Shown: positions 28,762-33,110, counted from the first letter of the stretch. The stretch is DNA of 64,000 bases from Fibrobacter sp. (GCA_017965445.1 JAGCPZ010000048.1:1-64000), one strand, 5' to 3'. Numbers and translations are program-made. The notes: generated by a model not told the origin, from the letters alone.

Positions 28762-28783
28762 ATTTTCCACACGTGTGGAAAAT
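28762..28783. promoter_or_regulatory. Perfect 22-bp palindrome, operator-like
   Basis: ATTTTCCACAC is followed immediately by its exact complement GTGTGGAAAAT. It lies 18 nt upstream of a sequence block (28802-28852) that is also found, again behind a palindrome, before the DUF1016 gene. The short spacerless palindrome is more like a protein-binding operator than a terminator. Confidence 0.7.
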
Positions 28784-28801
28784 TTGCACAGCAGCTACTT
28801 A

Positions 28802-28852
28802 TGTAAAATTTTCCTGTCCCCCTTGCCAGCTTTTTAGATATTAGGTACATTA
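28802..28852 (+). promoter_or_regulatory. Conserved upstream block shared with the DUF1016 gene
   Basis: The order TGTAAAATT, TTCCT, CCCCTTGCCAG, TATTA, TACATTA matches 31013-31062 base for base at most positions, although the genes behind it are unrelated. TTGCCA and TATTA are about 10 nt apart, too close for a standard -35/-10 pair, so the promoter elements are not assigned. Likely a shared promoter or regulator site. Confidence 0.5.
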
Positions 28853-28858
28853 ATGCAG

Positions 28859-28899
28859 CACGTGATTCTCTGTCAAATGGAGAATCGCGTCTTTTTTTT
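28859..28899 (+). terminator. Hairpin plus T-run upstream of the AlbA_2 gene
   Basis: GATTCTC pairs with GAGAATC and the stem extends outwards (ACG with CGT); a T8 tract follows. The hairpin ends 50 nt before the start at 28951, downstream of the conserved block, so it would sit in the leader. It could stop transcription from upstream genes or act as an attenuator. Confidence 0.65.
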
Positions 28900-28950
28900 C
28901 CGTGATTTTGGAATAAGGGGACGCCTCTAATATTCAAGGAGGTGCTACTG

Positions 28951-30687
28951 ATGAAAATTTATTCAGCTCAAGAGCTGTTTCACATGCTTTGTGTTGTTGA
29001 TGAAAGCGTGTGGGTTGAAGCCAAGGGTAAAAGCGATTCCACTCAATCACTTATGGAATCAGTCTGTTCGTTTAGCAATGAGCCTGGTTTGGGTGGGGGC
29101 TATATTCTGCTTGGCATCGGCGAAAATACCAGGAGTCGGGACAACCGTTTTTATGTTGAGGGCGTTGCAGATGCGGATAAAGCTCAGCTTGACATTTCTA
29201 CGCAGTGTTCGACTATGTTCAATTTTCCAGTTCGTCCGCGTATTGATGTGGAACAGATTGAAGGCAAGAATATTTTGAAGATTTTTGTGCCGGAACTTCC
29301 GAGTGTGCAGAAACCCGTATATTTCAAAAGCAGGGGTTTGCCACAGGGTGCTTGGCGTCGTATTGGTTCTAGCGATCAGCGTTGTACCGAGGAGGATTTG
29401 TACACGTTCTACCAAGATAACACGAATTTCGATTCATCAATCATCAAGAATACAAGTTTCGAAGATGTTGATTTGGAAGCTGTCAAATATTATCGACGGT
29501 GTCGTAAGGAAGTAAATCCCAAAGCTGAAGAACTTGGCTACAACGACAGGGATCTTTTGATATCGCTGGAGTGCCTCTCGCCAAATGGCAATTTGACTTT
29601 TGCGGGAATTATGCTTTTTGGAACGAAGCAGGTTTTAAGGCGCTTTTATCCACTGATGCGGACGGACTATATTCGCGTGCGTGGCAATGAATGGGTAGAA
29701 GATGTTGACGAACGTTTTTCAGCAATAGAATTCATGGGCCCGCTTATGCTTCAAATAGACAGGATGATTGATGCTGTACTTTCTGATTTGCCGCAGAATT
29801 TTTCGTTGAAAGAAGGGCAGATTCATGCAACGACAAAGCCCGACTTGCCGGAACGAGTGATAAGGGAGGCGATTGTGAATGCCGTCATGCATAGGTCGTA
29901 TCACCATAATCGCCCGACGCAAATTATTCGCTACAATAATCGAATTGAGATTATTAATTCGGGTTATTCCTTGAAACCGCAGGAAGATATTGGTACAGCG
30001 GGGAGCGATACGCGAAATCAGTTGATCGCGTCGATTCTTCATGAGACGAATCTTGCGGAATTCAAGGGAACAGGAATCCGCACTATGCGTCGTTTGACAA
30101 TGGAGGCGGGGCTCTCTATGCCCACATTTGAATCGAACAGAAAAAGCGACACTTTCACGATTCGTTTGCTATTGCACAAATTTTTTAATGAAGAAGATAA
30201 TGTTTGGCTTGAACGGTATAGCGGAGTTTCTCTGTCGCGGGATCAGCAGATTGCCTTGATTTTTGCGCGCGAAGTTGGCGCTGTAGATACGCTTGCCTAT
30301 GCACAGTTGATTGGCGTTAAAATGAACCTTGCTGATGAAAATCTCGGATTCATGAAAGAATTAGGGATTTTGGAACAAAAGGGTCGTTCGCTAGAAACAG
30401 CGTATTATGTGTTGAATCAAGCATTTGAATCCACCCCCCAAGTCACCCCCCAAGTCACCCCCCAAGTCGCCCCCCAAGATGATATACAAACTAAATGCAA
30501 TGAACTGGTCTTGTTCTGTAGAATCCCTCGGTCTAAAAAGGAGATGATGGCATTCTTGAAGTTGTCTGACCGGAAGAGTTTTGACAAATTGTACCTCAAG
30601 CCATTGCTTAACAAAAGAATACGCTATACCATTCCAGATAAGCCGAATAGTCGAATCCAGAAATATGTGGCGATTGATGAGAATTAG
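28951..30687 (+). CDS. Schlafen AlbA_2 / HATPase_c_4 helicase-like transcriptional regulator
   Basis: About 578 residues. AAGGAGGT at 28937-28944 is 6 nt upstream of ATG 28951, overriding an in-frame start at 28942. The N-terminal AlbA_2 (Schlafen-type) domain has ESVWVEAKGKSDSTQSLMES and GGGYILLGIGEN. The C-terminal ATPase-like HATPase_c_4 domain has ERVIREAIVNAVMHRSYHH, NRIEIINSGYSL and GTGIRTMRRL. Near the end is a (PQVT)n repeat, then a winged-helix-like tail. Such proteins bind DNA and sense nucleotides; roles in defence or regulation are suspected. A hairpin-bearing leader precedes it. Confidence 0.85.
   Translation: MKIYSAQELFHMLCVVDESVWVEAKGKSDSTQSLMESVCSFSNEPGLGGGYILLGIGENTRSRDNRFYVEGVADADKAQLDISTQCSTMFNFPVRPRIDVEQIEGKNILKIFVPELPSVQKPVYFKSRGLPQGAWRRIGSSDQRCTEEDLYTFYQDNTNFDSSIIKNTSFEDVDLEAVKYYRRCRKEVNPKAEELGYNDRDLLISLECLSPNGNLTFAGIMLFGTKQVLRRFYPLMRTDYIRVRGNEWVEDVDERFSAIEFMGPLMLQIDRMIDAVLSDLPQNFSLKEGQIHATTKPDLPERVIREAIVNAVMHRSYHHNRPTQIIRYNNRIEIINSGYSLKPQEDIGTAGSDTRNQLIASILHETNLAEFKGTGIRTMRRLTMEAGLSMPTFESNRKSDTFTIRLLLHKFFNEEDNVWLERYSGVSLSRDQQIALIFAREVGAVDTLAYAQLIGVKMNLADENLGFMKELGILEQKGRSLETAYYVLNQAFESTPQVTPQVTPQVAPQDDIQTKCNELVLFCRIPRSKKEMMAFLKLSDRKSFDKLYLKPLLNKRIRYTIPDKPNSRIQKYVAIDEN
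30433..30478. repeat. 12-nt tandem repeat encoding PQVT
   Basis: Nearly four copies of the unit CAAGTCACCCCC lie in frame within the AlbA_2 gene and encode PQVTPQVTPQV(A)PQ. The unit is a multiple of three, so copy changes would alter linker length without shifting the frame. Confidence 0.9.
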
Positions 30688-30759
30688 GTAAAACAGTCCC
30701 CAACGGAGCAAATAAAAACAGAACATATTCTTTGAAAAAAAATAACACAGGGACTAACT

Positions 30760-30966
30760 ATGCAACCACTAAAACTTGAAGATCTCAATGCCCAGTTCGA
30801 CAGCATCCTCCGCAGGTATCGCGACGATGGCCTTATCGCTTACCGCGACGCGGGCGAACTGCTCAAGTACGAAGGCGGCCTCCCGGAAGTCAACCGGCTG
30901 AAAATATCTTGGCTGTCGCGGTTCAAGAATCGCCCCGCCATGAGAGACGAACTGGAAAAAATTTAG
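30760..30966 (+). CDS. Small protein of unknown function
   Basis: 68 residues, MQPLKLEDLNAQFDSILRRY and onwards to RLKISWLSRFKNRPAM. It is charged and mostly helical with no membrane segment or motif I recognise. It starts 8 nt after a modest purine-rich AGGGA and fills the space between the AlbA_2 and DUF1016 genes. Codon use is normal. It could be a small regulator of its neighbours, but nothing in the sequence shows this. Confidence 0.5.
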   Translation: MQPLKLEDLNAQFDSILRRYRDDGLIAYRDAGELLKYEGGLPEVNRLKISWLSRFKNRPAMRDELEKI

Positions 30967-30976
30967 TCTCGTCAGC

Positions 30977-30995
30977 TGTTCGGAAATTCCGAACA
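30977..30995. promoter_or_regulatory. Perfect 19-bp palindrome, operator-like
   Basis: TGTTCGGAA, one base, then TTCCGAACA. It lies 17 nt before the conserved block at 31013-31062, the same arrangement as at 28762-28802, but the palindrome sequence differs completely. This suggests cognate but different binding proteins. Confidence 0.65.
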
Positions 30996-31012
30996 ACTGC
31001 GGCTGAGCCTAG

Positions 31013-31062
31013 TGTAAAATTTCCTTAAGCCCCTTGCCAGAATCCCAATATTATCTACATTT
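31013..31062 (+). promoter_or_regulatory. Conserved upstream block (second copy)
   Basis: It shares TGTAAAATTTCC, CCCCTTGCCAG, TATTA and TACATT in order with 28802-28852. It precedes the DUF1016 gene by about 80 nt. The repeat spans only non-coding sequence, so it is likely regulatory rather than a duplicated gene end. Confidence 0.5.
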
Positions 31063-31097
31063 CAGCTGCGGTTCCTAATAGTGCAGGCTCCGAAAGG

Positions 31098-31130
31098 CAT
31101 TTGATGATTATCAAATGTTTTTCTTTTTTT
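31098..31130 (+). terminator. Hairpin plus T-run directly before the DUF1016 ribosome site
   Basis: CATTTGAT and ATCAAATG pair around a 4-nt loop, followed by TTTTTCTTTTTTT. The Shine-Dalgarno AAAGGAG begins 2 nt later and ATG 31144 follows. A terminator-like structure this close to translation start would make an attenuator; it could also be a true terminator with read-through. Confidence 0.65.
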
Positions 31131-31143
31131 CAAAGGAGTCACT

Positions 31144-32322
31144 ATGTCTAAAGAGAAAACCACTTCGTCAAAGAGCAACGCGAACCTCAACGCCGACTTC
31201 ATAACGGATTTGAAGAGCATCGTTTCTACGGCACGGAATATGAGTTTTCGTGCGGCAAATCTGATGCAGGTTGCCTGCAATTGGCTGCTAGGCTGGCGAA
31301 TTGTGGAACAGGAACAGCAGGGAAAGGCGAGGGCTGATTATGGGAAACATGTTGTTGAAGCGGCTTCCGAAAATTTAACTGCTGAATTCGGAAAGGGTTT
31401 CTCGATCGCATCGTTAAAAAGTTATAGGAAATTTTATCTTAATTTTCAGGATTTACAGGTATTTCAAACTCTGCCTGTAGAGTTTAAGAAAGCGATTGCT
31501 GCAAAAGGGCAGGCATTGCCTGCCCTTTTTGAAAGTGAGGAAATAAGGCAGGCTCTGCCTACCCAATTATCGTGGAGTCATTACGAATGCCTTATGCGTG
31601 TCACTGACATCGATGCTCGAACGTGGTATATGCAGGAAGCCGCTTCACAGCAATGGGATTATCGCACCCTAAAGCGGAATATTGCGTCTCAATATTACTA
31701 TCGGTTAATGCAAACGCCCAAGGCTAAAAGGGCTACCGTTGTCAAGGAAATGAAAAAAATGACGGCCGATTATCAGAAGGAGCGTTCGGAGTTTATCAAG
31801 AATCCTTTGATTGCAGAATTTCTTGGAGTAAATCAGGATGCAGCGGTGACTGAGTCAACATTGGAAAATGCGATTTTGAATCACTTGCAAAAATTCCTGA
31901 TGGAAATGGGGAAAGGCTATGCTTTTGTTGGTCGTCAGCAACATATTCATACAGAAGATGACGACTATTATATTGACTTGGTGTTTTACAATTACATGCT
32001 GAAATGTTTTGTTTTGATAGACTTGAAAACAAGAAAAATATCGTACGAAGATGTCGGGCAAATGGATATGTATCTCAAGCTCTACGACACTTACAAAAAG
32101 ACCGAAGGAGATAACCCGACAATTGGCATAATTCTCTGTTCAGACACTAATGCCGATGTCGCTCGTTTTTCAACACTTGCAATAAATAAACGTATGTATG
32201 CTGCAAAATATTTGACCTACATTCCGTCTAAGGAAATTCTGGCCCGTGAGATTGAAATGCAAAAGGAACAGTTTATTGAGCAATACGGAAAATTAAAGAA
32301 AAAAAGTAAAGCAAAGAGCTAA
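31144..32322 (+). CDS. DUF1016 (YhcG-like) PD-(D/E)xK nuclease
   Basis: 392 residues. The N-terminal DUF1016_N helical domain has ARADYGKHVVEAASENLTAE and FGKGFSIASLKSYRKFYL; the C-terminal nuclease has DDDYYIDLVFYNYMLKCFVL and IDLKTRKISYEDVGQMDMYL, with Asp where other PD-(D/E)xK enzymes have Glu, as in many family members. The family is found in mobile and accessory regions and linked to DNA recombination or phage defence. ATG follows AAAGGAG. Residues about 119-136 are encoded by a palindromic segment (31503-31529). Lys-rich C-terminal tail KLKKKSKAKS. Confident family call. Confidence 0.9.
   Translation: MSKEKTTSSKSNANLNADFITDLKSIVSTARNMSFRAANLMQVACNWLLGWRIVEQEQQGKARADYGKHVVEAASENLTAEFGKGFSIASLKSYRKFYLNFQDLQVFQTLPVEFKKAIAAKGQALPALFESEEIRQALPTQLSWSHYECLMRVTDIDARTWYMQEAASQQWDYRTLKRNIASQYYYRLMQTPKAKRATVVKEMKKMTADYQKERSEFIKNPLIAEFLGVNQDAAVTESTLENAILNHLQKFLMEMGKGYAFVGRQQHIHTEDDDYYIDLVFYNYMLKCFVLIDLKTRKISYEDVGQMDMYLKLYDTYKKTEGDNPTIGIILCSDTNADVARFSTLAINKRMYAAKYLTYIPSKEILAREIEMQKEQFIEQYGKLKKKSKAKS
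31503..31529. repeat. 13-bp-arm palindrome inside the DUF1016 coding sequence
   Basis: AAAAGGGCAGGCA, one base, then TGCCTGCCCTTTT, encoding part of KGQALPALF. Shorter related pairs flank it: ACAGG...CCTGT at about 31455-31479 and AGGCA...TGCCT at 31546-31560, which encodes QALP again. All share the CTGCCT core, so this is a local cluster of palindromes at a variable loop of the protein. Confidence 0.85.
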
Positions 32323-32585: not shown

Positions 32586-33110
32586 TTATTTTGAAACGTT
32601 TTCGACGTAAAGAATTAGATTGTAAAGCCGTGTATCTGCTTTGGACGATTCCATTGAACGATGTTCAATTTGTGTGAAGTAGGTTGAATCGGTTGTGTAG
32701 TATGTTAAAGGAATTGCGTCTAACTCTTCGTTGTTGGAAATCGGCTTTATTATATAGCGGTCATTGATAGTGCCGTTCTTGTCTCGGTATGGGAAAAACA
32801 TCGCTTTCAAGTCATGTGGCTTTTTGGAAATGTGAATGGTTTCGTACTTTTGATAATCTTGGCTGTCATCTGTTTTCTTGTAGATGTTGTATTCAAAATA
32901 CAAACTGTCATTTCTGATGCCAATGGCGTTGTGAATGCCGTTATAATGTGCTGCATCGTCAACGGCAAGGAAAATACATGCTTCGGGGGCTGAAGTTGCT
33001 TCTTGGGAAATGCTGGGTAGAGCATGATAGGATATTGCTGGTGCGCAGCCGCAAATTGATATGGCGATAATGGATAAGATTGCGAGTGCCCAGTAACGAG
33101 TTCTTTTCAT
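32586..33110 (-). CDS. Lipoprotein of unknown function
   Basis: 174 residues. Signal peptide MKRTRYWALAILSIIAISIC ends at a lipobox (ICGC), so it is lipidated at Cys22. The start follows GGAGAAAAT. The mature protein is polar with Tyr/Asp-rich segments (NDSLYFEYNIYKKTDDSQD) and no motif I recognise. It is on the minus strand, so it converges on the small ORF and diverges from purD. Likely envelope-located in Fibrobacter style. Confidence 0.75.
   Translation of the reverse strand: MKRTRYWALAILSIIAISICGCAPAISYHALPSISQEATSAPEACIFLAVDDAAHYNGIHNAIGIRNDSLYFEYNIYKKTDDSQDYQKYETIHISKKPHDLKAMFFPYRDKNGTINDRYIIKPISNNEELDAIPLTYYTTDSTYFTQIEHRSMESSKADTRLYNLILYVENVSK

What the first reader, a model, noticed from the sequence alone, without database searches (positions are those of the whole stretch)
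28762..31144. Two unrelated accessory genes share the same layered leader
The AlbA_2 gene (28951) and DUF1016 gene (31144) have the same order upstream: a perfect palindrome (28762-28783; 30977-30995), a gap of about 17 nt, a conserved block of about 50 nt (TGTAAAATT, CCCCTTGCCAG, TATTA, TACATT), then a hairpin with T-run, Shine-Dalgarno and ATG. The palindromes differ in sequence while the block is conserved, which suggests a common promoter with gene-specific operators plus an attenuator. Seen in sequence; regulation is inferred.
Basis: partly seen in the sequence, partly recalled or inferred. Interest (0 to 1): 0.7.

Follow-up and report, generated by a model that had tools for sequence, protein, structure and literature searches.

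The report
Shared leader RNA of swappable defence genes
In Fibrobacter and its closest relatives, many unrelated, interchangeable genes of the phage-defence and toxin-antitoxin type start with the same promoter and folded RNA leader, which is predicted to keep them switched off; this suggests they are held under one common control, although no experiment has yet tested it.

Summary
The block is a sigma-70-like promoter (TGTAAAATT-N8-CCCCTTGCCA-N17-TACATT). It occurs 5 times in this genome and in most Fibrobacter genomes (reversed-pattern control: none). It is followed at once by a structured leader of two main types. Type A (AlbA_2 gene) has three hairpins: a terminator-like one at the predicted transcript start, a middle one containing the T-run, and a third that buries the Shine-Dalgarno; covariation supports the structure. 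Type B (DUF1016 gene) is a near-invariant leader with its own terminator-like hairpin and anti-Shine-Dalgarno. A covariance model built without the window copies finds the type A leader here (E 6e-16), in 28 of 29 good-quality Fibrobacter genomes, and outside Fibrobacter only in two sister genera. The same leaders front DUF1016, AlbA_2, Bro-N, ORF6N, RhuM-Fic and toxin-antitoxin-like genes. At matched chromosomal sites the gene is swapped, with the breakpoint inside the leader. Modelling predicts a buried Shine-Dalgarno that opens if the first hairpin fails. The upstream palindromes are not part of the module. No Rfam family matches. Regulation and its signal are untested.

The parts
28802..28851 (+). 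Promoter block 1: TGTAAAATT upstream element (28802-28810), -35 TTGCCA (28823-28828), 17-nt spacer, -10 TACATT (28846-28851)
28860..28890 (+). H1 of the type A leader: hairpin at the predicted transcript start, followed by a T-run (28892-28899); intrinsic-terminator-like
28887..28924 (+). H2 / alternative helix GCGTCTTTTTTTT...AAGGGGACGC: the T-run is its 5' arm; in its extended form it excludes the base of H1
28923..28943 (+). H3: GCCTC (28923-28927) pairs with the Shine-Dalgarno AAGGAGG (about 28937-28942); the inner stem of other members is missing in this copy
28951..30687 (+). Gene behind leader 1: SLFN_AlbA_2 + HATPase_c_4 + Fic-like_C protein, 578 aa
31013..31061 (+). Promoter block 2: TGTAAAATT (31013-31021), -35 TTGCCA (31034-31039), 16-nt spacer, -10 TACATT (31056-31061)
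31068..31140 (+). Type B leader: near-invariant segment 31074-31105, anti-SD GGCTCC (31086-31091), hairpin GGCATTTGATGATTATCAAATG with T-run (31118-31130), SD AAAGGAG (31132-31138)
31144..32322 (+). Gene behind leader 2: DUF1016/YhcG PDDEXK nuclease, 392 aa
28762..28783 (.). Palindrome 17 nt after the stop codon of the preceding RAMA/DUF4357 gene; not a regular part of the module
30977..30995 (.). Palindrome 10 nt after the stop codon of a 68-aa ORF; shared by loci with other genes downstream (L090, L105); not a regular part of the module

Best explanation
A family-wide leader module of Fibrobacteraceae. SHOWN: one sigma-70-like promoter is joined to a conserved RNA leader in front of unrelated accessory genes, and the gene behind it is exchanged at fixed chromosomal sites with breakpoints inside the leader. 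PREDICTED from sequence, covariation and folding: transcription starts at the foot of hairpin H1, which with its U-run acts as a terminator, so most transcripts would stop after about 40 nt. Transcripts that read through would fold H1-H2-H3, and H3 buries the Shine-Dalgarno: a double lock that keeps potentially harmful genes nearly silent. If H1 does not form, because its 5' arm is bound, removed or misfolded, its 3' arm pairs instead with the segment that otherwise holds the Shine-Dalgarno. One event would then prevent termination and open the ribosome site. INFERRED, and weakest: that a common signal or factor does this, and that homologous recombination through the shared leader lets newly acquired genes inherit the control. 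Type B leaders reach a similar end with a terminator hairpin between an anti-Shine-Dalgarno and the Shine-Dalgarno, but the H1 switch is not predicted for them.
For: Block: 5 copies in this genome, 31 of 61 genomes, reversed control essentially 0. Covariance model R1, built without any window copy, hits window 28852-28949 at 70.6 bits, E 6e-16, and 28 of 29 good-quality Fibrobacter genomes. R1 holds no promoter, yet 66 of 77 further hits have the -10 and 51 have both boxes; 19 of 19 type B leaders found without the block carry it. Structure: 97.5% of cells paired, 13 pairs with double changes, 76 compensated cells, 0 of 500 shuffles as high; the alternative helix is 98.5% paired. Folding: SD unpaired median 0.018 against 0.32 for other genes (p 9e-23); masking the 5' arm of H1 opens the SD in 73 of 89 leaders, masking the 3' arm in 3 of 89, control genes 9.5%; window type A copy 0.03 to 0.59. 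Exchange: 15 of 28 locus pairs with matching upstream flanks have different genes, matches ending at +26 to +187 of the block. Leader types are not gene-specific.
Against: No transcript ends, expression data or mutants were available; the transcript start is inferred from the -10 box. Folding is thermodynamic and ignores co-transcriptional kinetics and proteins; H1 is strong, so something must act on it, and no candidate factor was found. The key switch bases (CGC/GCG) are invariant and cannot show covariation. Type B does not show the H1-dependent opening (0 of 9). Most DUF1016 genes in the genus lack this leader (7 of 30 inspected have it), so the gene family does not depend on it. Shared ancestry and recombination could explain part of the conservation.
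Confidence: 0.58

Rival explanations
1. Static damper: the leader lowers expression of costly genes by a fixed factor (partial termination plus a buried ribosome site), with no signal and no switch.
For: Conserved terminator-like hairpin and SD sequestration. No conserved aptamer or leader peptide was recognised. Type B lacks the predicted H1 switch.
Against: The alternative helix is kept in 98.5% of cells, and opening of the SD depends on the 5' arm but not the 3' arm of H1, which a fixed damper would not need.
Confidence: 0.25
2. Recombination hook: the block and leader are conserved mainly because genes are exchanged through them by homologous recombination; their regulatory content is ordinary.
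For: Matched sites with swapped genes and breakpoints in the leader; near-identical type B leaders before different genes.
Against: Compensatory changes keep the helices while the sequence changes; the leader persists in two sister genera; it is joined to a promoter and start codon each time.
Confidence: 0.12
3. Ligand riboswitch, RNA thermometer or protein-binding leader, in which a metabolite, heat or an RNA-binding protein acts directly on H3 or its conserved A-rich internal loop.
For: A conserved unpaired A-rich stretch (AAC-A-CAAC) in H3; an almost invariant 32-nt type B segment.
Against: No Rfam family matches; the genes share no metabolic pathway; the inner stem of H3 is missing in the window copy.
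Confidence: 0.12
4. One reading: each palindrome is an operator bound by its own gene product, on a common promoter.
For: Two perfect palindromes about 17 nt before the blocks; palindromes at a similar distance in about five independent loci.
Against: 10 of 100 distinct loci against 66 of 971 control windows; the same palindrome precedes unrelated genes; both lie just after upstream stop codons.
Confidence: 0.03
5. Site-specific recombination site of an integron-like cassette system.
For: Modules sometimes lie in short arrays, and hairpins are present.
Against: Breakpoints are scattered over about 160 nt instead of one point; the element lies at the promoter end of the gene, joined to promoter, SD and ATG; it is confined to one bacterial family and absent from viral contigs.
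Confidence: 0.03

Closest known systems
Intrinsic-terminator attenuation leaders of bacterial operons (for example Bacillus subtilis rplJL, PMC4538822)
   Same: Promoter, short structured leader, terminator-like hairpin with T-run before the start codon
   Different: Here one leader serves many unrelated, exchangeable genes; no leader peptide and no gene-specific ligand was recognised; the hairpin sits at the predicted transcript start
Type I toxin mRNAs (tisB, PMC7708055; timP, PMC11228461)
   Same: Primary transcript predicted to be translationally shut by its own fold; removing or blocking a 5' segment is predicted to open the ribosome site
   Different: No antisense promoter above chance; the genes are large proteins, not small membrane toxins; shared by many gene families
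Type III toxin-antitoxin operons (ToxIN type; from general knowledge)
   Same: Order promoter, short RNA, terminator hairpin, Shine-Dalgarno, gene
   Different: No tandem antitoxin repeats and no ToxN-like gene seen; the RNA is shared by unrelated genes
Gene cassettes of integrons (from general knowledge)
   Same: Single accessory genes exchanged at a common DNA element, sometimes in arrays
   Different: The shared element is the promoter and leader, not a 3' recombination site; breakpoints are diffuse, as in homologous recombination

Membership tests
Sigma-70-type promoter | -35 and -10 hexamers with 16-18 nt spacing at a fixed place before the transcript | tested here: met
   Spacer 17 nt in 96, 16 in 11, 18 in 1 of the leaders; TACATT at -10; sense promoter at the expected place in 106 of 107
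Intrinsic terminator / attenuator | GC-rich hairpin directly followed by a U-rich tract, between promoter and gene | tested here: met
   Median stem 15 (type A) and 14 (type B) pairs, 6 and 7 T in 8; both window copies found by the scan
Intrinsic terminator / attenuator | Transcripts end at the T-run and read-through is regulated | not testable with these tools
   Needs 3'-end RNA data
Translational leader with sequestered Shine-Dalgarno | SD paired in a structure supported by covariation | tested here: met
   SD helix intact in 99.3% of cells but invariant; the inner stem covaries; SD accessibility far below other genes
Mutually exclusive switch | An alternative helix that frees the SD when H1 is absent | tested here: inconclusive
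   Predicted in 73 of 89 type A/C leaders, helix kept, but not in type B, and its core bases are invariant
Known Rfam family | Match above the gathering score | tested here: not met
Type I toxin-antitoxin | Antisense antitoxin RNA encoded opposite the leader | tested here: not met
   Antisense promoter-like sites in 15 leaders against 11 shuffled
Integron cassette | Site-specific breakpoint at a fixed base of a 3' site | tested here: not met
   Breakpoints at +26 to +187 of the block
Palindromic operator of the downstream gene | Palindrome recurs upstream of the promoter across members | tested here: not met
   10 of 100 loci against 66 of 971 controls

The most novel reading that the evidence does not exclude
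Fibrobacteraceae hold a changing set of single-gene defence and toxin-antitoxin modules under one dedicated leader-RNA switch. One common cue, phage infection for example, disrupts H1 and releases termination and translation together across the set, and new genes join this regulon by recombining behind the shared leader.
Probability: 0.3. Interest if true: 0.85.

Novelty: new variant of a known kind. Interest (0 to 1): 0.68.

Why it matters
Single-gene defence candidates such as DUF1016 (PADLOC PDC-S02) and AlbA_2 proteins are widespread, but their control and triggers are mostly unknown. A leader shared by a whole exchangeable set gives one short RNA element on which to test when such genes are switched on. 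It also shows a way for newly acquired genes to come under existing control: the gene is swapped and the promoter and leader stay. The leader can serve as a probe for further accessory genes in these poorly studied rumen bacteria.

Tried and rejected
Palindromes as operators: not enriched. Antisense RNA: no antisense promoter above shuffles. Known riboswitch or RNA family: none. Leader peptide: by reading the sequence, the only start codons in the leaders are not conserved (type B GTG is followed by a stop in some copies). Phage-borne element: no match in viral contigs; the genome-contig scan gave Fibrobacter or Fibrobacterales records except one Mucilaginibacter MAG contig, not examined. Block as the general Fibrobacter promoter: at 3 mismatches only the five leader copies appear in this genome; among the relatives a few non-leader matches occur, chiefly one conserved gene in three genomes. 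Leader as necessary for DUF1016 genes: no, most lack it. Literature searches found no description of this leader, but the library holds open-access papers only.

Full report
WHAT IS THERE. The two leaders read as described. The block is a sigma-70-like promoter: TTGCCA-N17-TACATT at 28823-28851 and TTGCCA-N16-TACATT at 31034-31061, with a fixed upstream element TGTAAAATT. Over 118 leaders the consensus is TGTAAAATTTTCTTacnCCCCTTGCCAa-TTTTTgAATATTAGG-TACATT, with a 17-nt spacer in 96, 16 in 11 and 18 in 1. In this genome the block occurs five times and never with the pattern reversed. It is found in 31 of 61 relatives searched, essentially confined to one genus; a scan of 84,980 species gave 51 of 52 records named Fibrobacter or Fibrobacterales/-aceae.

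THE LEADERS. Three forms follow the promoter. In type A (window 28852-28950) the predicted transcript begins at the foot of a strong hairpin H1, followed by a T-run; the T-run is the 5' arm of a second hairpin H2; a third helix H3 pairs GCCTC with the Shine-Dalgarno. On 27 aligned type A leaders 97.5% of cells are paired, 13 pairs show changes on both sides, 76 cells are compensated, and no shuffle of 500 reached these values; sliding the partners by one to three columns drops pairing to about 50%. Type C (GCGCGTCATTCC...GGAATGATGCGC) keeps the same plan with another sequence. Type B (window 31068-31143) is different: a nearly invariant segment with an anti-Shine-Dalgarno GGCTCC, then a terminator-like hairpin with T-run, then the Shine-Dalgarno. 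It was found 19 times in 14 of 61 genomes, and all 19 have the block upstream although the search did not use it.

INDEPENDENT TEST OF THE LINK. A covariance model of the type A leader, without promoter and without any window sequence, finds the window leader at 70.6 bits, E 6e-16. In Fibrobacter it hits 49 of 61 genomes, 28 of 29 of good quality, with one to eight copies each. Of 77 usable hits in newly fetched loci, 66 have the -10 box and 51 both boxes; many of the rest carry a short insert that splits the -35. In a sample of the phylum, matches occur only in Fibrobacter and two sister genera of the same family, where the promoter is mostly conserved too.

THE GENES. Of 72 first genes, 23 match DUF1016_N, 19 SLFN_AlbA_2, 9 Bro-N, 6 ORF6N, 2 DUF2442 and 1 RhuM-Fic; the DUF1016 proteins match the PADLOC candidate PDC-S02. 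Some modules look like toxin-antitoxin pairs by their sequence and size (my reading). Leader types and gene families mix: AlbA_2 genes have A, B and C leaders, Bro-N A and C, DUF1016 A and B. Upstream neighbours are often restriction-type genes; in the window an Eco57I/ResIII protein, a GmrSD/HNH protein and a RAMA protein precede the modules. Most DUF1016 genes in the genus lack this leader, so the leader marks a subset.

EXCHANGE. Among pairs of loci whose upstream flanks match up to the block, 15 of 28 have different genes behind it. The match usually ends inside the leader, at +26 to +187 of the block start. In the window, the flank before the DUF1016 module is also found in L090, where a type C leader and a Bro-N gene follow; the flanks match again from window position 32586. 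Scattered breakpoints fit homologous recombination better than a site-specific recombinase (inference).

HOW IT MAY WORK. The Shine-Dalgarno of type A and C leaders is predicted to be unpaired with a median probability of 0.018, against 0.32 for other genes of the same loci (p 9e-23). Blocking the first 16 nt, the 5' arm of H1, opens it in 73 of 89 leaders; blocking the 3' arm opens it in 3 of 89; the 5' block changes only 9.5% of control genes. The reason is an alternative helix, present in 98.5% of cells, between the 3' arm of H1 and the segment that otherwise holds the Shine-Dalgarno. So the failure of H1 would both prevent termination and free the ribosome site. This is predicted, not shown. 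It is not seen for type B, whose terminator and anti-Shine-Dalgarno may act without such a switch.

COMPARISON. Parts of this are familiar: attenuation leaders with terminators (PMC4538822), and type I toxin mRNAs that are inactive until a 5' segment is removed or refolded (PMC7708055, PMC11228461). Neither label fits as a family: there is no antisense RNA promoter above chance, no Rfam match, and one leader serves many gene families.

LIMITS. Transcript starts are inferred from the -10 box. Many genomes are metagenome assemblies. The covariance model's E-values are rough, and the alignment for one search was made by sequence but the structure was derived from its members. 'Different gene' means no nucleotide match, which can include distant members of one family. 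The literature held here is open access only.

Noticed in passing
L048:1120-1240 and similar (L061, L089, L215, L217, L224, L225, L252, L258): A ~75-nt palindromic insert (CGCAAGCGCCAAATGC...GCATTTGTG) splits the -35 at TTG^CCA in several leaders; 11 copies in leaders against 1 elsewhere in 1.5 Mb of fetched loci.
   Followed up: partly
L054, L063, L064, L080, L096, L124 (leader T-run): A second, REP-like ~80-nt insert (GCCTCGGCAATGGAAATAA...) lies in the T-run after H1; 10 copies in leaders, a few elsewhere.
   Followed up: partly
L046, L080, L107, window 28762, window 30977: Unrelated palindromes start 36-41 nt before the block in about five independent loci; not enriched overall, but the position is unexplained.
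   Followed up: partly
L296, L279, L276 upstream of DUF1016 genes: DUF1016 genes without the block sometimes have another leader of the same plan: CTCC, terminator-like hairpin with T-run, then GGAGATACTATG. More leader families may exist.
   Followed up: no
L212:9593-12234: Three leader modules in a row behind McrBC-like genes: HigBA-like pair, AlbA_2 gene, and a short gene.
   Followed up: partly
L156: One contig labelled Mucilaginibacter carries the promoter pattern; misbinning or chance not checked.
   Followed up: no
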